A DNA stretch of 64,000 nt from Cordylochernes scorpioides (taxonomy: Eukaryota; Arthropoda; Arachnida; Pseudoscorpiones; Chernetidae), in the NCBI GenBank assembly GCA_030710605.1, contig CP092870.1, positions 55,451,532-55,515,531 on the forward strand, written 5' to 3'. The translations under genes were made by a program, and so were the position numbers. This document shows, piece by piece, positions 11,420-63,742 of this stretch. A model generated the notes under the pieces. The model saw only the letters and a list, made by a program, of their open reading frames with translations. It made no database searches and had not been told where the DNA came from. Position 1 is the stretch's first letter, and every line of letters begins with the position of its first letter.

Positions 11420-11725
11420 ATTTGAATTTTTATTTTTCTTCTTTCTTATCTCCACTCAATCATATTAGGATATCAAGCTTGTAAAGCTTGAGACTTTTGA
11501 TGGTATCTGTCGGGGATGAGTAGAGCTCATCAATGGATGAGTCAATACAGTCAATAATGTGTTATATTTATATGAATTTGTAAATACTAGAGATAATTAT
11601 CACAGATTTAACCATTTTGGTAAATATATTTATGATTATTTTTCTAACCTGGGAGGATCAAATTCTTAATATATCTTATTGCTATTTTTTATTTATTTAT
11701 ATTTGTATAACATGTTTATAACTTA

Positions 11726-11786
11726 AGAAAAAGGCATCTCTTTATCGTGCAGCTGAAAGTTGCTGATAAAGAGATGTCTTTTTCCT
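11726..11786. repeat. Short foldback (GGCATCTCTTTATC arms)
   Basis: Arms AAAAAGGCATCTCTTTATC and its complement flank an 18-bp loop. The same terminal motif bounds the hammerhead-bearing repeats at 47353-47840 and 57870-58070, so this is probably a collapsed, loop-deleted member. Confidence 0.7.
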
Positions 11787-11928
11787 AATTTATTCACCTT
11801 ATCCCGGTACAATATTACATTTGTAATATTTTTTCACAATGTTCATAACTGCCCCTGTTTAAAAATGTATATCGACGCAATTTTATCCTTAGCCGGGATA
11901 TCGCGTTTTGTGTGTTGAAATAAAAATA

Positions 11929-13350: not shown

Positions 13351-13844
13351 TCTCTTTAAATAAAAGCAGACAACCGGCGATATTAAAGACTCAATTTCCT
13401 TAAAATTTGTCAATGAGTGTATATAAAAGAAACACACCATTCTCCACAAATTATTTAACTGTCTTTCAGTTAGCTTATAAAAGTTAAGAAAACTTAGGAT
13501 TTTTTTGTGTATTTTTTGTATAGGGAAATTGTTTTGGGAGTGTAAGGTAGAAACATCCGGGATTGGTTAACTTTTGAAAAGTTCAGGGAGACAATCCTCT
13601 TGTGCAAGAACTGATAAACAATCTTCAGGTAGATGTCTTATCTGATAGTTGACAACCTTTAAGCCACGCTATCTTCACTCATAGGTTTGTCAGGGAGGAC
13701 TACAGCTCTACACATTGTACTGTCTCTACCTAAAACACTGATATTGTTGATATTTTAATCAATTTTTAAACTGAATGTTCAACCATTTCAAAATTCAATT
13801 GTAAAATATTCACACTACGCTCGTATATTCATACTTATTCCTAG

Positions 13845-14162: not shown

Positions 14163-14310
14163 ATATATGTTTGATTAATCAGGAATGTGTATTTGGCCGA
14201 TTCATAAATAATTAAAAAATCAACGAATAGTTTATATTTATTCCGATAGATGGAGCAAGCCATAAGCAACTCTCAGTTGCCCGATAAGGAGATTCCTTTT
14301 TCCTATCCTA
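14163..14310 (+). repeat. Fragment of the hammerhead-bearing repeat family
   Basis: From GATTAATCAGGAATGTGTAT through CCGATAGATGGAGCAAGCC to GATAAGGAGATTCCTTTTT it matches the right arm of 47655-47840. The ribozyme segment itself is not included here. Confidence 0.6.
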
Positions 14311-19098: not shown

Positions 19099-19112
19099 TA
19101 ATATTTTAATAT

Positions 19113-19147
<35 letters not shown>

Positions 19148-19149
19148 AA

Positions 19150-19315
19150 TGAAGACATTAAGACGCGAATGTTTATTTAAACAAATAAATCAAACTTCAA
19201 GTGTCCTTATTGCGATGACACATATCGCTCGATATCACAGTAAGGACAGTAGAAGTTTGATTTATTTGTGAAAAGAAACCTTCGCCACTTAATGTCTTAA
19301 TTCGTTATATATGGA
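19150..19315. mobile_element. MITE family B, internally deleted copy
   Basis: Inverted ends: the left includes AATAAATCAAACTTC.AGTGTCC and the right includes GGACAGTAGAAGTTTGATTT. Outer arms contain GACATTAAG and CTTAATGTC. The ribozyme-like centre found in 32220-32267 and 49754-49800 is missing here. Confidence 0.7.
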
Positions 19316-19374
19316 AGAATATTATATAAATATGTTATATAAACATTATATATATTTAAAATTATCATTTCTAG

Positions 19375-23037: not shown

Positions 23038-23391
23038 TTAACGGATATTCAAGTTTCTACATATGTCCTGATATTGTGCAGGTAGATCTATATGTCGGTT
23101 AATGCTATTTTTTGATATGGATACTATGGCTTCTATGATCAGTCTTTGGTATTTATTGGAGATGTTATTGTATAATGTGGTGGGTGAAGTTATATCAAAA
23201 GAGTGGCCTGTGTCATGAATGTGGTTGTAGATGAGGGACCTGTTGTCTTTGTTATTGACGCACCTGCCATGCTCAGTCATCCTGATGGCCACGGACCTAC
23301 CAGTCTCACCTATATAGGTTGCGCTACAATCGTTGCATGAGACTGAGTAGAAATACCTGCATCTTACCGTACTCAACACAATCCGCTGCAA
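23038..23391 (-). pseudogene. Penelope-like GIY-YIG endonuclease, left copy
   Basis: Minus-strand frame with VSCNDCSATYIGETGRSVAIR, the Cx2C pair, HIHDTGHSF histidines and the IIEAI glutamate. These residues are typical of the Penelope endonuclease with its CCHH zinc site. The RT and linker domains are missing upstream. It ends CRNLNIR just before a G-run. Truncated and not autonomous. Confidence 0.85.
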
Positions 23392-23834
23392 TATCTCACC
23401 TTCTTAAGCCTCATGGCATTAACACCTACTATACAAACAATAGAAGCCTGGCCACCATCCTCAGACATCCCATTACCCGATTGCCGAGACCTGCCATTGT
23501 TCAGTCATCGGGTGGCTCGGTCTACTCAGTCACATGCAACGATTGTAGCGCAACCTATATAGGTGAGACTGGTAGGTCCGTGGCCATCAGGATGACTGAG
23601 CATGGCAGGTGCGTCAATAACAAAGACAACAGGTCCCTCATCTACAACCACATTCATGACACAGGCCACTCTTTTGATTTAACTTCACCCACCACATTAT
23701 ACAATAACATCTCCAATAAATACCAAAGACTGATCATAGAAGCCATAGTATCCATATCAAAAAATAGCATTAACCGACATATAGATCTACCTGCACAATA
23801 TCAGGACATATGTAGTAACTTGAATATCCGTTAA
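23385..23834 (+). pseudogene. Penelope-like linker and GIY-YIG endonuclease, right copy
   Basis: The open plus-strand frame starts at 23319, but homology begins near 23385. It carries the RT-endonuclease linker (LLKPHGINTYYTNNRSLATIL, LPRPAIVQSSGG), then YSVTCNDCSATYIGETG and the same C-terminus as the left copy. The domain itself is intact. The RT lies beyond the truncation. The protein family nicks DNA for target priming. Confidence 0.85.
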
Positions 23835-31793: not shown

Positions 31794-31972
31794 AATAAAA
31801 TAATTTAACCCTACCATCATTTCCCTGGCTGCTCTTGTGCATGAACTTGTAACTGTATTTTAGCTCTAATATAACCTTCCAATTTATACTTTATAAAACT
31901 ATTTTAGAGGCGTAATATTCTTTTTTTAAATAAAACAATTTCTACTGTCCTTACTGCGATAGAAAAATTAAA

Positions 31973-32020
31973 GGGAGGGCCTGGCTCATCAGTGGTGAAC
32001 CCTCCCAGCGGTTTCGCCAG
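31973..32020 (-). ncRNA. Hammerhead-core-like pseudoknot motif, minus copy
   Basis: Exact inverse of 32220-32267; see that entry. Presence in both arms means either transcript strand carries one sense copy. Confidence 0.4.
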
Positions 32021-32219
32021 TTTAATCTACCATACCGCTATTATATTGCATTTTTGGAACTTCCTTTTATAGGTGACTGTTGTAAGACTCTTGGAATGGG
32101 TATTTTAGAAGAACTATGGACATAAGCTTTTAGGACAGCAGAATTAAATATAATTATAAATATAATAAATAATAAGGAAGTTCCAAAAATGCAATATAAT
32201 AGCGGTATGGTAGATTAAA

Positions 32220-32267
32220 CTGGCGAAACCGCTGGGAGGGTTCACCACTGATGAGCCAGGCCCTCCC
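32220..32267 (+). ncRNA. Hammerhead-core-like pseudoknot motif
   Basis: Order: CTGGC, GAAAC, GGGAGGG, TTCACCA, CTGATGA, GCCAG, G, CCCTCCC. The CUGAUGA and GAAA boxes flank the CUGGC/GCCAG stem exactly as stem II of a hammerhead, in permuted (type II) order. A second stem GGGAGGG/CCCUCCC crosses it. Both stems covary: at 49754-49800 they read TTGGC/GCCAA and GGAGAG/CTCTCC. I cannot draw a convincing stem I, so self-cleavage is unproven. Confidence 0.45.
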
Positions 32268-32463
32268 TTTAATTTTTCCATCGCAGTAAGGACAGTAGAA
32301 ATTGTTTTATTTAAAAAAAAAAAAAAGAATATTACGCCTCTAAAATAGTTTTATAATTTGATAACAGATGGCGCTCTAGTACATCGTAATTTATACTTTC
32401 ATAACCTTTCTTTAGCTATCTGCTCACTACAGTATATATAACCTGTACATATCGGGGACTCAC

Positions 32464-32605: not shown

Positions 32606-33044
32606 CTGAAGTTTTTCTTTCCCTAATTTTCCACGTGGCAATAGAATCTCACTTCGAAACTCTTCATTTTCATTACTTTCGAACTAGCTTAACTCAATTT
32701 CCCAACTAATGTTTCAATTATACTAAATGGTCTGCATAATGTGTATTTATTAGAATACAATAGCCACATGGATTGTTCAGTTGTAGAAATAGATTTTAAA
32801 AGAGCTTAAGAATACCCAGGAGAAAACTACTTAGTCTTATTCCATTATATTGATGAATATTCGCAATACAAACTCCGCCTTTGCCGGTCCCAAGCCCGGC
32901 TGAAAAAGGAGGAGGGGGAGCAGTAACAAGCTTGCTAAAAAACCTGGGCTCAGCTGGTCCGGCTGATAGTACCCTGTAAGGGCTCCTGGTCCAGGGATAC
33001 AAGATGAGCAGCGTTTGTACTCCATGTTAGGAGTGGCGGTACAT

Positions 33045-46228: not shown

Positions 46229-47477
46229 TCTGCCTTCTGTAAAGCACATGTGCTTCTGGTAAGGATATGCCATTTTTATTTTTAATAATTATTCATCGTG
46301 TTCATTAAAATTTCCTTTTCTTGAATTTATTCAATTTACAAATTTATATAATATCTAGGCTGTTATATTATTCATTGTTCAATCATTCATCTTGTTTTTG
46401 GAATCATTCCATTTATTATCTTTATCATATTTAGATTGCAACATCATTCATCTTTTATTCAATTACCTTGTTTTGATATCATCTCATTCTCATATCTCTG
46501 TCCTATCTTGTTTTCAACATCGTGCATCGTGTACATTAGAATATATTGTTCTAGGAATCATACCATTTGCATATCAGAGTCATATCTTAGCTGTAACATT
46601 TTCTATTGCTCATTCAAATATATTGTTCTTGGAATCATGCCATTTACATATCTCTGTCATATCTGTTCTGTAACAATTTAAATCGTTTATACAATTATAT
46701 TGTTTTTTGAATTATACCATTTACATATTACAGTCATATCTTAGCTGTAACAATATCTATTTCTCATTCAATAATTTTGTTTTTGGAATCCTTACCTTTA
46801 ATTATCTGTGTCATATCTGCTCAGTAACAATTTAAATCGTTTAGTCAATTATATTGTTTTAGGAATCATACCATTTACATATCACAGTCATATCTTAGCT
46901 TTAACATTATCTATTGTTCATTCAAATGTATTTTTCTTGGAATCATGCCATTTACATATCTCTGTTATATCTGTTCTGTAACAATTTAAATCGTTTATAC
47001 AATCACAGTCATATCTTAGCTGTAATATTATCTATTGCGCATTCAATCATTTTGTTTTTGGAATCCTTCTCTCTACCTATCTGTGTCATATCAGGGATGT
47101 AACATCCTTCATCATCTATCCAAATATTCTTATCTTGGAGTCATTCCATCTAAATATTTCTGACACATCTGAGGTGTAACTTTAATCAACCCTTATCTTA
47201 TGTCACTCCTGCGCCATCATTTTATCTACACAGTGCAACTGTATCTACGATAAATAATTATTGAAAGCCATATATATTTTCTCTAACATTTATTAATTCT
47301 ATGAAAAGAATAGTAAAAATGTGATATTGTACTTGGATAAGGTTCATAAATTATGAAAAAGGCATCTCCCCTTATCGTGCAACTAATAGTAGCTGATGGC
47401 TTGCGCCAAATATCAACTATTCTCATTGACTTTTTAATTATTCCAGAATTGGCCAATAACCCATTATTGATCAAGCT

Positions 47478-47518
47478 AACCACGTACGCGTTTCGGGCTG
47501 TTGTCTCTCATCACCTTA
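47478..47518 (-). ncRNA. Degenerate hammerhead copy
   Basis: On the minus strand it keeps GAAACGCGTACGTGGTTAG and a GTGATGA core (first C changed to G). The 5' strand of stem I is lost and stem II is mismatched (AGAC/GCCC). Probably inactive. Confidence 0.55.
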
Positions 47519-47654
47519 TCCCAGTACGATATCACATTTGTACTATCTTTTCACATTGTGTCGCGGTCTCGCGCAATTCTGGCCTTAACTACCCGTTTCA
47601 TGATTTTTCAGGATGCCTAAATGAACAGTTTTTGGTCGTTGAGGTACAGCTTGC

Positions 47655-47696
47655 ACCACGCTGATGAGGGCCAACAGCCCGAAACGTGTACGTGGT
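47655..47696 (+). ncRNA. Miniature hammerhead ribozyme
   Basis: ACCACG | CTGATGA | GGGC-CAACA-GCCC | GAAA | CGTGTA | CGTGGT. Stem I (ACCACG/CGUGGU) is 6 perfect pairs and stem II (GGGC/GCCC) 4. The core boxes CUGAUGA and GAAA are intact, and GUA precedes the expected cleavage after A47690. Stem III is minimal (ACGUGU, self-complementary with two wobbles), so it could form between two molecules. This matches the small hammerhead variants described for Penelope-like elements, which cleave as dimers. Confidence 0.8.
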
Positions 47697-48018
47697 TAGA
47701 TTTTCTTGATTAATCAAGAATGGGTATTTGGTCAATTCTGTAATAATTGAAAATCAATGAGAATAATTTATATTCATTCCGATAGATGGAAAAAAGCAAT
47801 CAGTAACTCAGTTGCACGATAAGGAGATGCCTTTTTAATAATTTATTCATTCTGTTATACATTTTTGGAGGTCCATGTATAATAATAATTTATTTAAGTT
47901 CTATTATATTTCTGCTATAATCGCCGTTAGATTTGCGATTCTAAATACTCTTTGATCATTAAGACTTTCTATTTCAAAGAAATTTGATGTAGAGAGAATC
48001 GTTTCACGCTATACTAAC

Positions 48019-48799: not shown

Positions 48800-49249
48800 T
48801 TTGCCTTATAAACTCTAATTCAGTACGAATGTATAGATCCCTTTTCAAAATACCTAGAAGTTTCAATCTAAGCCTAGGTGAATTTCATTACAGACGACGT
48901 AGCAATCTCCAGGATATCGCCAACAAAACATAATGTTATCATCAGGGGAGTTTCAGGAGAGATAACAACCGGTACCATCTGTGTGCTGATCTTTGTTTGA
49001 AACCAATAAAATGGTTGATTCGACACATGTAACTTGGACTGTTTCACCTCAGGATGAAATTTATTCTAAAGCCATTTAGAACAAGTTTTATCCCAATATA
49101 TTTATCGATATCATTTTTCCTTTTTTGTTCGACTTTCCTTCGAGAATAATTGTATTTATATAAGGTTGTGTTAAAAAAAATCGTAATATTATTATTTCAT
49201 TCTTTCTCAGGAAGCTTCTGAGACCAAAAGTTTTTTGATCGCAGTTGTA
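48800..49249. other. No recognisable gene
   Basis: AT-rich intron sequence without a recognised repeat. Confidence 0.4.
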
Positions 49250-49254
49250 CAGCC

Positions 49255-49440
49255 TTTACACGCTCTCGAAGGCAACAGTCCGAAACGCGTTCGTGGATGG
49301 CTTTTCTTGATTTATGAATAAAATGGGTTGGCCAAATATCAGGGAACAGGCTGATTCAACGTTTAGTTGATTTCTGTTCCAATAGATGGCGCTCTGCCAT
49401 CTAAAAAGCACATGTGTTCATGGTCAAGATATGCCTTCTT
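49255..49440 (+). repeat. Degenerate hammerhead-bearing repeat
   Basis: 49255-49297 keeps GCAACAGTCCGAAACGCG and CGTGGATGG, but CTGATGA has become CTCTCGA. The rest matches 46180-46290, including the CTCF-like CCAATAGATGGCGC at 49379-49392. Confidence 0.6.
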
Positions 49441-49620: not shown

Positions 49621-49862
49621 TTTTTACAAATAAATCAAACTTCTACTTTCCTTACTGCGATGAAAAATTATAGTGGAATGGCTTAGATCATCATAAAAGA
49701 AGAATGATACAATACAGTTTTAGAACTCTAAAGAAGCAGTTCGGTGGATTAAATTGGCGAAACCGCTTGGAGAGTTCACCACTGATGAGCCAAGCTCTCC
49801 CGATATTATTTTTTATCGCAGTAAGGACAGTAGAAGTTTGATTTATTTATAAAATAAACATT
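49621..49862. mobile_element. MITE family B, single-core copy
   Basis: ~34-bp inverted ends (left TTCTACTTTCCTTACTGCG, right CGCAGTAAGGACAGTAGAAG). It carries the core motif at 49754-49800. ~242 bp, no coding. Confidence 0.85.
49754..49800 (+). ncRNA. Hammerhead-core-like pseudoknot motif, variant
   Basis: TTGGC, GAAAC, GGAGAG, TTCACCA, CTGATGA, GCCAA, G, CTCTCC. The boxes are unchanged from 32220-32267, while one pair in each stem changed on both sides, keeping the pairing. Confidence 0.45.
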
Positions 49863-54647: not shown

Positions 54648-54736
54648 TCCCTCGAGCCGGATTTGAACTAGCGACCTAAGGATCACCGCTTAATTACATC
54701 TACAGTCCTCCGCTCTGCCAACTGAGCTATCGAGGG
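54648..54736 (-). tRNA. tRNA-Tyr(GUA) with 16-nt intron
   Basis: Minus strand. Acceptor CCCTCGA/TCGAGGG with A discriminator; D arm GCTC..GAGC; anticodon arm GAGGA-CTGTAGA-TCCTT with anticodon GTA. A 16-nt intron (ATGTAATTAAGCGGTG) sits after position 37, the usual place in eukaryotic tRNA-Tyr. T arm GCTAG-TTCAAAT-CCGGC has one A-C mismatch. Box A TAGCTCAGTTGG and box B GTTCAAATC are present, and a T-run follows. The T-stem mismatch could make it weak or a young pseudogene, but all else fits a working gene. It lies within the first intron of the protein gene, same strand. Confidence 0.92.
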
Positions 54737-57699: not shown

Positions 57700-57840
57700 T
57701 CCCAAATTAAACAAAATTCTACTGCCGTTATTGCGATGCATTAATTCGGCAAAATCCCAAAGAGGAATCACAATGATGAACCAATCCCTTCCGACATTTG
57801 TTCATCGAGATATGGACAGTGAAATGCTTATTTTATTTGA
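57700..57840. repeat. Decayed MITE family B copy
   Basis: TTCTACTGCCGTTATTGCG end and a weak core (CGGCAAAATC...ATGATGAACC). The boxes are eroded. Confidence 0.5.
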
Positions 57841-57869
57841 ATAAGAAAATAATATAAAACTGAAAGGTA

Positions 57870-58070
57870 CATATTGCACTACGCTGATGAGGATCAACGG
57901 CCTTAAACGCGTACGTGGTTAGCTTCTCTTGATTAATCAAGAAAAGCTATTTGACCAATTATTTTTTAATAATAAAAATTCAACTATTAGTTGTGATATC
58001 AATTCCGACAAATCGCGAAATCCATTAACCACCTTTAGTTGCACGATCAGGAGATGCCATTTTCATAGTT
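57870..58070 (+). repeat. Hammerhead-bearing repeat, degenerate ribozyme
   Basis: 57878-57919 has ACTACG/CGTGGT stem I and an intact CTGATGA. Stem II is broken and GAAA has become TAAA. ACGCGT in stem III is a perfect palindrome. The rest matches the right arm of 47655-47840 to GATCAGGAGATGCCATTTT. Confidence 0.65.
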
Positions 58071-58244
58071 TTCTCTTTAGGTTATTAAAATAATAATGAT
58101 AAATTACATTTTTCATATTTGCATCGCGCAAAAGAGCGATTAGAACTTGTTTTGTCATCACATACAAATCTTGGACAAATGTACTTTTAAAATACTAGAA
58201 TTTTATGAAGAACGGTTGTATATTCTAGATTTGTGTGTACCTAC

Positions 58245-61385: not shown

Positions 61386-61570
61386 CCTAATCTACCATAC
61401 CGCTGTTATATTGTATTTTTCTATCTTCCTTTTATAGTGATACTGATGTTAGACTCTTGGAATGGGTATTTCAGATGAACTATGGACGTAAGCTTTGAGG
61501 TAGATCAAACTGGCGAAATCGCTGAGAGGGTTCACCACTGATGAGCCATGCCATCTCATTAATTTTTCCA
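61386..61570. mobile_element. MITE family B, half copy with core motif
   Basis: Contains ATCTACCATACCGCTGTTAT and the core at 61510-61558: CTGGC, GAAAT, TGAGAGGG, TTCACCA, CTGATGA, GCCAT, CCATCTCA. Stem 2 retains TGAGA/TCTCA; stem 1 has lost its terminal pair. Only one family end is present. Confidence 0.65.
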
Positions 61571-61572
61571 AT

Positions 61573-61818
61573 TCCAGTAATCGTTGTCTAAAATAAAGTT
61601 AATTGCTTCTTTTTATGATTAATTGTTGTAATTAAAGTAATCGTAGTCTTAAATGAATTTAATTCTTTCTTTTTATGATTCATTGTTGTAATTAGAGTAA
61701 TCGTTGTCTTAAATTAAGTTAATTGTTTCTTTTTATGATTCATTGTTGTAATTAAATTAGTCGTTGTCTTAAATGAAGTTAATTGTTTCTTTTTATGATT
61801 TATTGTTGTAATTAAAAT
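61573..61818. repeat. 60-bp minisatellite, about four copies
   Basis: Units of AGTAATCGTTGTCTTAAAT, GAAGTTAATTGTTTCTTTTT and ATGATTCATTGTTGTAATTA, exactly 60 bp apart. Confidence 0.9.
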
Positions 61819-62661: not shown

Positions 62662-63601
62662 CTAGCGGATGTGTACCCGGCTTCGCCCAGGTTTTATCGA
62701 GTGAAAGTTTGCCTAACAAATATTGATAATAATATTCTGGAACACACAGAATATTATGATAATAATGTTAATAATATTCGTTACATTATCTATATTAATA
62801 AAATGCAAATTTCATAAGTGTACATCACTAAAAACTTTCGTTACAATGCATCAATTTCAACCAAATTTTCAACATTTATGTAAAACGAGATGGAGCAGGT
62901 TTTGCTTAACATCGAAATATTTTTCCCTAACATTAACATGCGTAACTTCGCTGTTATCGATTAAATACAAAAAAATCAACAGAGTTAATTTTATTTATAT
63001 ATAAATACAAAATTAAATTTCAACAGAGTTAATTTTTTTACATACTAGCTAATAATCTCAATCTAAAAAAATATTCAAAACAAGCAATTTTAAGATAACA
63101 CCATATGTAAAACAGTCGGCCAAGAAAACAAATAACGTGTAATATATATATAATATAATATATATAATAAAATCTTAAATATTATTTATCAAAAGTAAGA
63201 TTATCTCAGGATGACACGGCAATTTATTTGAGACAAGAATAATGATACAATTCCAAGGCGAAGATACTATTCCTTTAACTTCCAATTACCGAGGGAACCA
63301 ATTAATATTGATTTTATTCAACTTATCGAGCATTTTTCAAGGGACCGGAAAAAATGTTCACTAGATAAAACGATGATTTTGTAATGTAGAAAATTAGGAA
63401 AGACAAAATTCAGGATGACACGGCACACAGGGACCGGGAAAAAAATGTTCACTTTATCGAGAGATTCAAATTTACAAGTTTCAAATTATCAAAATATATC
63501 TTCTTTTTTTAATAAGTTTATAGAGAATTGTTTTAACAAATGTTCGTTAGACAAACCTTTACTCGGGTAAAAACCCGGGCGAAGCCGGGCACATCCGCTA
63601 G
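62662..63601. mobile_element. Helitron-like element with inverted CTAG ends
   Basis: Both outer ends read (outward) GGGCGAAGCCGGG hairpin then CATCCGCTAG followed by T, at 62662-62705 (minus) and 63553-63601 (plus). The 940 bp between is AT-rich and holds two TRIM LTR scraps (63203-63250 and 63386-63428). A single Helitron has only one such end, so this is an inverted pair or a TIR element with Helitron-like ends. Confidence 0.6.
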
Positions 63602-63700
63602 TGTATTTATATAATATATAAAATATATTTTTCGAGCGAACATATCCTCTCTCTTTACTGAATAGATTTTTAAAAAGATATATATAAATAAAAATATCTA

Positions 63701-63742
63701 GAGATATACTACATGATCTTAGCCAAAAGGCCGAGAAACGAT
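63701..63742 (-). pseudogene. U2 snRNA 5'-end fragment
   Basis: On the minus strand ATCGTTTCTCGGC and TTTTGGCTAAGATCA match the first ~30 nt of U2 snRNA with one change. GTAGTAT follows with a small deletion. The remaining ~150 nt are absent. Likely a truncated retro-copy or a U2-derived repeat head; not a functional gene. Confidence 0.75.

What the first reader, a model, noticed from the sequence alone, without database searches (positions are those of the whole stretch)
32220..32267. Conserved crossing-stem motif with permuted hammerhead boxes in a MITE family
Three copies (32220, 49754, 61510) keep GAAA(C/U), UUCACCA and CUGAUGA unchanged. The two stems that cross each other change in compensating pairs: CTGGC/GCCAG to TTGGC/GCCAA, and GGGAGGG/CCCTCCC to GGAGAG/CTCTCC. 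Conserved boxes with covarying stems suggest selection on an RNA fold. The fold is not a standard hammerhead because stem I is missing and a pseudoknot is implied. It may be an undescribed self-cleaving or protein-binding RNA.
Basis: seen in the sequence. Interest (0 to 1): 0.82.

Follow-up and report, generated by a model that had tools for sequence, protein, structure and literature searches.

The report
Scrambled-order hammerhead ribozyme in transposon-like repeat
A repeated, transposon-like piece of DNA in a genome of eukaryotic type carries what looks like a self-cutting RNA of the hammerhead kind whose three pieces come in an unusual order; that form is already described, and its carrier here is the unusual part.

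Summary
With 32201-32219 included, copy 1 (32201-32267, +) has every core part of a hammerhead ribozyme: cleavage-site block, GAAA block and CUGAUGA block, with stems I (4 bp), II (5 bp) and III (6 bp), in the non-circular order S-G-C, plus a 7-bp helix (GGGAGGG/CCCUCCC) joining the stem I and II sides. This is the published type-SGC hammerhead (Eckert et al. 2023, PMC10085705), some members of which were shown there to self-cleave. Cleavage is predicted between 32207 and 32208. An identical copy lies inverted in the other arm of the same palindromic element (31973-32039, -). Copies at 49735 and 61491 have broken pairs, the latter also a dead cleavage site; 57732 is a relic. Three of 22 pairs change on both sides across three distinct sequences; slid controls show none. 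None of 7316 shuffled windows gave such a core with the extra helix. What may be new is the vehicle: an inverted-repeat element with outward-pointing SGC ribozymes. A second inverted-repeat family here carries a type I hammerhead. Cleavage and any role are untested.

The parts
31891..32356 (.). Element A, copy 1: near-perfect inverted-repeat (palindromic) element; arms 31891-32070 and 32169-32356
   Evidence: no stop-to-stop ORF of 130 aa or more listed in it; folds to one long hairpin, -320.6 kcal/mol
32201..32267 (+). Type-SGC hammerhead, complete copy
   Evidence: descriptor scans; model hit 101.4 bits, but the model was built from it
32201..32211 (+). Block S: stem III 5' strand AGCGG plus U16.1 (32206), position 17 = A32207, predicted cleavage 32207|32208, stem I 5' strand UGGU (32208-32211)
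   Evidence: sequence; cleavage inferred by analogy with PMC10085705
32220..32233 (+). Block G: stem II 3' strand CUGGC (32220-32224), GAAA (32225-32228), stem III 3' strand CCGCU (32229-32233)
32234..32240 (+). 5' strand of the extra helix joining the stem I and stem II sides (GGGAGGG), directly after stem III
32244..32259 (+). Block C: stem I 3' strand ACCA (32244-32247), CUGAUGA (32248-32254), stem II 5' strand GCCAG (32255-32259)
32261..32267 (+). 3' strand of the extra helix (CCCUCCC)
31973..32039 (-). Identical inverted copy of the ribozyme in the other arm; predicted cleavage between 32033 and 32032 on the - strand
49735..49801 (+). Copy 2 of the ribozyme; cleavage triplet GUU; three unpaired positions (one each in stem III, stem I and the extra helix); two compensated pairs relative to copy 1; does not meet the 4/4/4 descriptor
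61491..61557 (+). Copy 3; blocks G and C kept, block S altered (position 17 is G, two breaks in stem III), one break each in stems I, II and the extra helix; one compensated pair; does not meet the descriptor
57732..57790 (+). Copy 4, decayed relic (CUGAUGA reads AUGAUGA, GAAA reads AAAA)
31942..31960 (+). Outer terminal-repeat box CTACTGTCCTTACTGCGAT; with up to 3 mismatches 7 matches in the window (also 32280-, 49643+, 49815-, 57719+, 19198+, 19234-)
   Evidence: 7 matches against 0.03 expected
19099..19348 (.). Related inverted-repeat element with the outer terminal repeats but no ribozyme

Best explanation
The motif is a type-SGC (non-circularly permuted) hammerhead ribozyme carried near the ends of a short inverted-repeat, presumably mobile, element. 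The RNA forms two neighbouring hairpins: stem III, whose loop holds the cleavage site and GAAA, and the GGGAGGG/CCCUCCC helix, whose loop holds CUGAUGA. Their loops pair twice, as stems I and II, and so build the hammerhead core. The RNA is predicted to cut itself after A32207, leaving a 2',3'-cyclic phosphate and a 5'-OH. Because the element is a palindrome with the ribozyme pointing outward in each arm, a transcript of either strand carries one sense ribozyme in its last arm. The most likely role is trimming the element's RNA away from downstream host RNA. Shown here: blocks, stems, order, copies, some covariation. Inferred: cleavage and the role. The confidence given is for the identity as a type-SGC hammerhead; activity of copy 1 about 0.7, a role in RNA processing about 0.4.
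For: All core features are present in copy 1: CUGAUGA, GAAA, a U-A pair next to the cleavage site, A at position 17, stems of 4, 5 and 6 bp, and a 7-bp extra helix. Chance: stems I>=4, II>=5, III>=6 in S-G-C order in 7 of 7260 shuffles and, overlaps excluded, 2 of 7316; with a 7-bp Watson-Crick extra helix 0 of 7316. Covariation on 3 distinct sequences (22 pairs, 66 cells): 87.9% of cells pair, against 36-51% at six slid registers; 3 pairs changed on both sides, against 0 at every slide. Simulation: P = 0.011 for the compensated pairs of copy 2 over all columns (0.0009 for columns 12-67) and 0.05 for copy 3. The unconstrained fold already contains stem III and the extra helix. Block order, extra helix and its direct joining to stem III match what is told of published type-SGC ribozymes, five of which cleaved as expected. 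A second inverted-repeat family in the window carries a type I hammerhead in the same outward position.
Against: No cleavage has been measured. Only copy 1, with its identical inverted twin, has every pair: copy 2 has three unpaired positions, copy 3 five and a dead cleavage site, copy 4 is a relic. Covariation rests on three sequences, with no compensated pair in stems I or III; the 3'-letter shuffle control is weak (19 of 500 shuffles reach the observed values) and further pair types are at the shuffled mean (390 of 500). With a loose search for the extra helix (G-U allowed, 6 bp) 40 of 7260 shuffles had an S-G-C hit with one, so only its full 7-bp Watson-Crick form is telling. The stem I-II linker is 8 nt where 3 is typical. 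In the free fold the loops hold small competing pairs, and in the full palindrome the antisense arm would pair with the ribozyme (-320.6 kcal/mol) and probably block it. No relative was recognised outside the window; these are collections of viral, phage and prokaryotic sequence, where a eukaryotic element is not expected.
Confidence: 0.85

Rival explanations
1. Fossil passenger: a real type-SGC hammerhead was once captured by the element and is now only copied along with it, under no selection and with no use to the element.
For: Of four loci only copy 1 keeps every pair; copy 3 lost a working cleavage-site block and copy 4 is decayed. In copy 2 one arm's ribozyme is ruined while the other is better kept. 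A related element at 19099-19348 has the terminal repeats without any ribozyme.
Against: Three compensated pair changes between copies, with the boxes unchanged, suggest selection on the fold for some time.
Confidence: 0.35
2. Retrozyme-like life cycle: self-cleavage frees RNA that is circularised and copied back by a Penelope-like reverse transcriptase.
For: Animal retrozymes and Penelope-like elements use hammerheads (passages of PMC7761336 and PMC7229834). The window holds an ORF that resembles, from memory, a Penelope GIY-YIG endonuclease (23286-23834; no Pfam match at 0.001).
Against: Animal retrozyme hammerheads usually lie in tandem repeats. Here the two copies are inverted, so one transcript carries one sense ribozyme and cannot release a unit circle.
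Confidence: 0.12
3. A DNA-level signal: the interlaced inverted repeats are transposase binding sites in the subterminal region of a DNA transposon, and the hammerhead likeness is chance.
For: The motif lies just inside the terminal repeats.
Against: A protein site would conserve letters, not swap pairs; three pairs change on both sides. The core with the extra helix came up in 0 of 7316 shuffled windows. The related element without the motif also exists as an inverted-repeat element.
Confidence: 0.04
4. The RNA acts from the opposite strand as an HDV-like ribozyme (P1 = GGGAGGG/CCCUCCC, P2 = CUGGC/GCCAG, P3 = UCAUC/GGUGA).
For: The strand order P1, P2, P3, P1', P2' fits that of HDV-like ribozymes (recalled), and the reverse strand closes a 5-bp hairpin that on the + strand has a C/A mismatch (read).
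Against: The stretch between P1' and P2' (AGCGGUUUC) has no P4 hairpin and no catalytic C followed by A's, as recalled for HDV-like ribozymes. Rfam on 31880-32380 at E up to 10 gave 9 matches, none of the HDV kind. The hammerhead reading also explains the boxes and stem III.
Confidence: 0.02

Closest known systems
Type-SGC hammerhead ribozymes (HRIMA-1 motif and type-SGC variants), Eckert et al. 2023, PMC10085705
   Same: Block order S, G, C; core nucleotides; stems I, II, III; an extra helix joining the stem I and II sides; direct joining of that helix to stem III, reported for a few of theirs
   Different: Linker between stems I and II is 8 nt (3 typical there). Theirs came from contigs with hairpin ribozymes and from metagenome, metatranscriptome and RefSeq searches; ours sits in a genomic inverted-repeat element. 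Their main text has no word beginning 'transpos'. Supplement not readable here, so this element could be in their list.
Minimal type I hammerheads of Penelope-like elements and Terminons (passages of PMC7761336, PMC11167929)
   Same: Hammerhead core in a eukaryotic mobile element; the window's second family (47655-47696) has such a minimal type I form with about 2 bp of stem III
   Different: Circular order C-G-S, no extra helix of this kind; those elements encode a reverse transcriptase and are arranged in tandem or partial tandem
Non-LTR retrozymes of animals (passages of PMC7229834, PMC7761336)
   Same: Short non-coding repeats with hammerheads
   Different: Tandem repeats, type I; here inverted repeats and type SGC
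Miniature inverted-repeat elements (MITEs)
   Same: Short, non-coding, long terminal inverted repeats, several copies
   Different: A ribozyme in the subterminal region; target-site duplication and matching transposase not established

Membership tests
Type-SGC hammerhead ribozyme | Conserved CUGAnGA, GAAA and a UH cleavage site (H = not G) | tested here: met
   Copy 1 and its inverted twin: CUGAUGA, GAAA, U32206-A32207. Copy 2 has U then U; copy 3 fails at this position (G).
Type-SGC hammerhead ribozyme | Blocks in the order S, G, C | tested here: met
   Descriptor scan in six orders, stems >=4: SGC at copy 1 (both arms) and one CGS hit at 47661; copies 2 and 3 do not reach 4/4/4
Type-SGC hammerhead ribozyme | Stems I, II and III all able to form | tested here: met
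   4, 5 and 6 bp in copy 1. Not met in full by the others: copy 2 has one break each in I and III; copy 3 one each in I and II and two in III
Type-SGC hammerhead ribozyme | Helix joining stem I and stem II sides, 0-44 nt after stem III | tested here: met
   GGGAGGG/CCCUCCC, 0 nt after stem III; published range seen; 0 of 7316 shuffles had such a helix with the core
Type-SGC hammerhead ribozyme | Linker of typically three nucleotides between stem I and stem II | tested here: not met
   8 nt (32212-32219). 'Typically' in the paper, so not taken as a strict requirement
Type-SGC hammerhead ribozyme | Covariation in the stems | tested here: inconclusive
   3 compensated pairs (1 in stem II, 2 in the extra helix), none in stems I or III, from 3 sequences; R-scape not run
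Type-SGC hammerhead ribozyme | Self-cleavage at the predicted site, abolished by a core mutation | not testable with these tools
   needs in vitro transcription
HRIMA-1 subgroup of type SGC | Five perfectly conserved base pairs in stem I | not tested
   The letters are in a figure that is not held; only the statement was read
Classic hammerhead types I-III | Cyclic order S-C-G | tested here: not met
   Order is S-G-C; no Rfam hammerhead match in 31880-32380 at E up to 10
MITE / DNA transposon | Terminal inverted repeats, short, non-coding | tested here: met
MITE / DNA transposon | Target-site duplication and a matching transposase | tested here: inconclusive
   The outer ends are A+T-rich palindromes (TTATAA), so no duplication can be read by eye; the terminal-repeat box occurs only at the copies listed; no systematic search for a transposase partner

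The most novel reading that the evidence does not exclude
A eukaryotic family of short inverted-repeat mobile elements uses non-circularly permuted (type-SGC) hammerheads as working parts. Placed outward in both arms, they let a transcript of either strand cut itself, while the antisense arm can fold over the ribozyme and switch it off. Two families without shared sequence outside the core in one 64-kb window, one with type SGC and one with type I, would mean that subterminal ribozymes are a convergent feature of such elements.
Probability: 0.3. Interest if true: 0.75.

Novelty: new member of a known kind. Interest (0 to 1): 0.58.

Why it matters
Type-SGC hammerheads were reported in 2023, and the parts of that report read here say little about what carries them in nature. 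A genomic family with related copies gives a natural mutation series for asking whether the permuted fold is under selection. It ties this fold to a transposon-like element, and the inverted twin arm suggests a simple way of switching it off. A passage of PMC3088659 says that the vast majority of repeat-associated hammerheads in eukaryotes are type I, so a type-SGC one is an exception worth testing.

Tried and rejected
Rejected readings. (1) Type II hammerhead with an open stem II: stems I and III cannot form between GAAA and CUGAUGA (by eye). (2) HDV-like ribozyme on the opposite strand: order fits, catalytic joint as recalled does not; no Rfam HDV match. (3) Known Rfam family: no ribozyme family among the 9 matches at copy 1 at E up to 10; the microRNA-precursor matches there (e.g. 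MIR4208, 61.8 bits against a cut-off of 140) reflect the long palindrome. (4) Twister: one sub-threshold twister-P1 match lies about 600 bases away, at 32866, and shows no relation to the motif.

Searches that led nowhere. Own genome: none held. The 132 loci then held (L001-L132) were put through the SGC descriptor (stems >=3, total >=13): 1 hit, L081, which leans on G-U pairs by eye and was not followed. Genome contigs: one hit, L133, a chance match inside a bacterial ORF; a model search of the genome it lies in gave 0 of 1, which the tool says shows nothing. Model R1 also gave a sixth window match, 13627-13675, E 0.45, taken as chance. Host species: not identified. Target-site duplications: not readable.

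Limits of the scans. In some searches strand overlap was not checked for the five other orders (nor for SGC), so those counts are upper bounds, and the 'stem III 6' of the CGS hit at 47661 counts overlapping pairs; its real stem III is about 2 bp, under the descriptor's own limit. The type I reading there rests on the layout and on related copies.

Dropped rows. The c1_5arm row is identical to c1 and was counted once by the tool. Copy 4 was left out of the alignment because it is decayed and gapped. Columns 1-11 were left out of one copy 2 test and of the copy 3 test, because copy 3 appears to have a deletion that reaches the S block (read); the copy 2 result with all columns is given as well.

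Full report
Observation. The three copies are as described. In all three, GAAA, TTCACCA and CTGATGA are unchanged, and the quoted pair changes are real. The short boxes on their own are at chance frequency in the window (14 TTCACCA against 10.0 expected; 9 CTGATGA against 8.8), so the case rests on their arrangement. Hammerhead position numbers used below (15.1, 16.1, 17) are recalled standard numbering.

Surroundings. The window looks eukaryotic by content (inference). Of 26 stop-to-stop ORFs of 130 aa or more, 7 were put to Pfam: they include a reverse transcriptase, RNase H, an aspartyl protease, a Tc3/DDE-type transposase, an endonuclease domain and an integrase match below its cut-off; one of the 7 had no match. 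No whole genome is held for it. Copy 1 lies in a palindromic element, 31891-32356, with arms 31891-32070 and 32169-32356. The other arm carries an identical inverted copy of the motif (31973-32039, minus strand). Copies 2 and 3 lie in diverged relatives, and a decayed fourth copy is at 57732-57790 (E 0.011, rough). A terminal-repeat box, CTACTGTCCTTACTGCGAT, has 7 matches in the window with up to 3 mismatches, against 0.03 expected. One relative, 19099-19348, has the terminal repeats without the motif. Copies 1 and 3 share part of their central region (68 of 107 bases, 87% identical).

What it is. A hammerhead core is made of three strands: the cleavage-site strand (S), the GAAA strand (G) and the CUGAnGA strand (C). 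With it, stem III (AGCGGU with ACCGCU, 6 bp), stem I (UGGU with ACCA, 4 bp) and stem II (CUGGC with GCCAG, 5 bp) can all form. A 7-bp helix, GGGAGGG with CCCUCCC, lies between stem III and stem I on one side and after stem II on the other.

Chance. A descriptor scan of the window with stems of at least 4 bp, in all six block orders, hit S-G-C at the two arms of copy 1 and C-G-S at 47661, nothing else; copies 2 and 3 do not reach it. Shuffled windows: at the loose limit (4, 4, 4) an S-G-C hit in 1 of 150 and 74 of 7260; at lengths met by copy 1 (4, 5, 6) in 7 of 7260 for S-G-C, and at most 35 of 7260 for the six orders added up. With overlapping strands excluded: 52 of 7316 at the loose limit and 2 of 7316 at copy 1's lengths. 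The extra helix, searched loosely (6 bp, G-U allowed), was found beside S-G-C hits in 40 of 7260 shuffles, so that loose form means little; as 7 Watson-Crick pairs it was found in 0 of 7316.

Fold. The plain minimum-energy fold of 32190-32275 contains stem III and the extra helix as two neighbouring hairpins (-28.4 kcal/mol, z -2.1, 4 of 200 shuffles fold as well). Stems I and II are then two loop-loop pairings between them. The same fold has a few small pairs inside both loops that would have to open.

Covariation. On the three distinct sequences, 87.9% of 66 cells pair. Three of 22 pairs change on both sides; with the partner strand slid by 1 to 3 columns either way, none do. The tool's shuffle control is less decisive: 19 of 500 shuffles reach the observed values, and the number of further pair types is at the shuffled mean (390 of 500). 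Placing the same number of changes at random gave P = 0.011 for the two compensated pairs of copy 2 over all columns, 0.0009 over columns 12-67, and 0.05 for the one compensated pair of copy 3 over columns 12-67; the share of pairs kept was not unusual in those simulations (P 0.57, 0.57 and 0.81). Stems I and III show no compensated pair. Breaks: in copy 2 one each in stems III and I and in the extra helix; in copy 3 two in stem III and one each in stems I and II and in the extra helix. Copy 3's position 17 is G, which should be inactive (recalled rule). So only copy 1 looks ready to cleave; copy 2 may be impaired.

Comparison with the known. Eckert et al. 2023 (PMC10085705; read: outline, sections 4, 13, 14, 15, 16, part 1 of 2 of section 18, and passages) describe non-circular permutations of the hammerhead. 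Their type SGC has the order found here, with an extra helix joining the stem I and II sides. They predict 583 such sequences and show cleavage at the expected site for five, with disruption and rescue of all four helices in one. In a few of theirs the extra helix follows stem III directly, as here. Differences: our stem I-II linker is 8 nt (typically 3), and the carrier is a genomic inverted-repeat element. Their main text has no word beginning 'transpos' and uses 'eukaryot' once, about another permutation. Their supplement could not be read, so this element may be in their list. Searches of the held library listed no other report of a type-SGC hammerhead or of one in such an element: searches listed all their papers (1, 3, 10, 3, 14 and 14), only 20 of 98 and 25 of 1,272. 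Titles and abstract starts were seen, and passages of five other papers.

How it may work. By analogy, RNA from 32201-32267 should cut itself between 32207 and 32208. As the ribozyme points outward in both arms, a transcript of either strand has one sense ribozyme, in its last-made arm. That suits trimming of the element's RNA from downstream RNA, my favoured but unproven role. The same palindrome folds into a hairpin of -320.6 kcal/mol, in which the antisense arm would cover the ribozyme, so an intact palindrome may be self-silencing. A circle-forming retrozyme cycle is less likely because the copies are inverted, not tandem. A passenger with no present role is a serious rival.

A second family. 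Element 47346-47846 is another inverted-repeat element; against element A its arm aligns only over 15 bases around CTGATGAG. One arm carries what reads as a minimal type I hammerhead (47655-47696: stem I 6 bp, stem II 4 bp, stem III about 2 bp, predicted cut 47690|47691; read). The inverted copy in the other arm has lost the first C of CUGAUGA. Relics lie at 57865-58085 and 49247-49328. Rfam scores it 18.9 bits as Hammerhead_HH9, below the cut-off of 52. Minimal type I hammerheads are known from Penelope-like elements (passages of PMC7761336).

Verdict. Ribozyme identity about 0.85; activity of copy 1 about 0.7; a role in processing the element's RNA about 0.4. The ribozyme is a new member of a known kind; its carrier is the unusual part.

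Noticed in passing
window 47346-47846 (ribozyme 47655-47696, +): A second inverted-repeat family carrying a minimal type I hammerhead in one arm and a ruined copy in the other; relics at 57865-58085 and 49247-49328, partial matches at 14171-14301 and 11718-11842.
   Followed up: partly
window 32866-32920 (+): Sub-threshold type-P1 twister ribozyme match (45.6 bits, cut-off 67.2; E 6.7e-7 for the window), outer stem P1 partly unpaired. A passage of PMC7761336 mentions truncated twisters at the 5' end of RTE retrotransposons, which this may be.
   Followed up: partly
window 63562-63742 (-): Match to U2 spliceosomal RNA just below the family's cut-off (41.4 against 46 bits), possibly a pseudogene.
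   Followed up: no
window 54648-54736 (-): tRNA gene match, 89 bases against a 71-position model, so probably with an intron or insert.
   Followed up: no
window 23286-23834 (+): ORF that by eye resembles the GIY-YIG endonuclease end of a Penelope-like element (recalled resemblance); no Pfam match at 0.001.
   Followed up: no
window 61558-61816 (+): A 60-bp tandem array (4.3 copies) starts immediately after the ribozyme of copy 3, where the outer terminal repeat lies in copies 1 and 2.
   Followed up: no
L081:11736 (+): The only S-G-C-like descriptor hit reported among 132 viral-contig loci (stems 5, 4, 4); looks weak by eye, leaning on G-U pairs.
   Followed up: no
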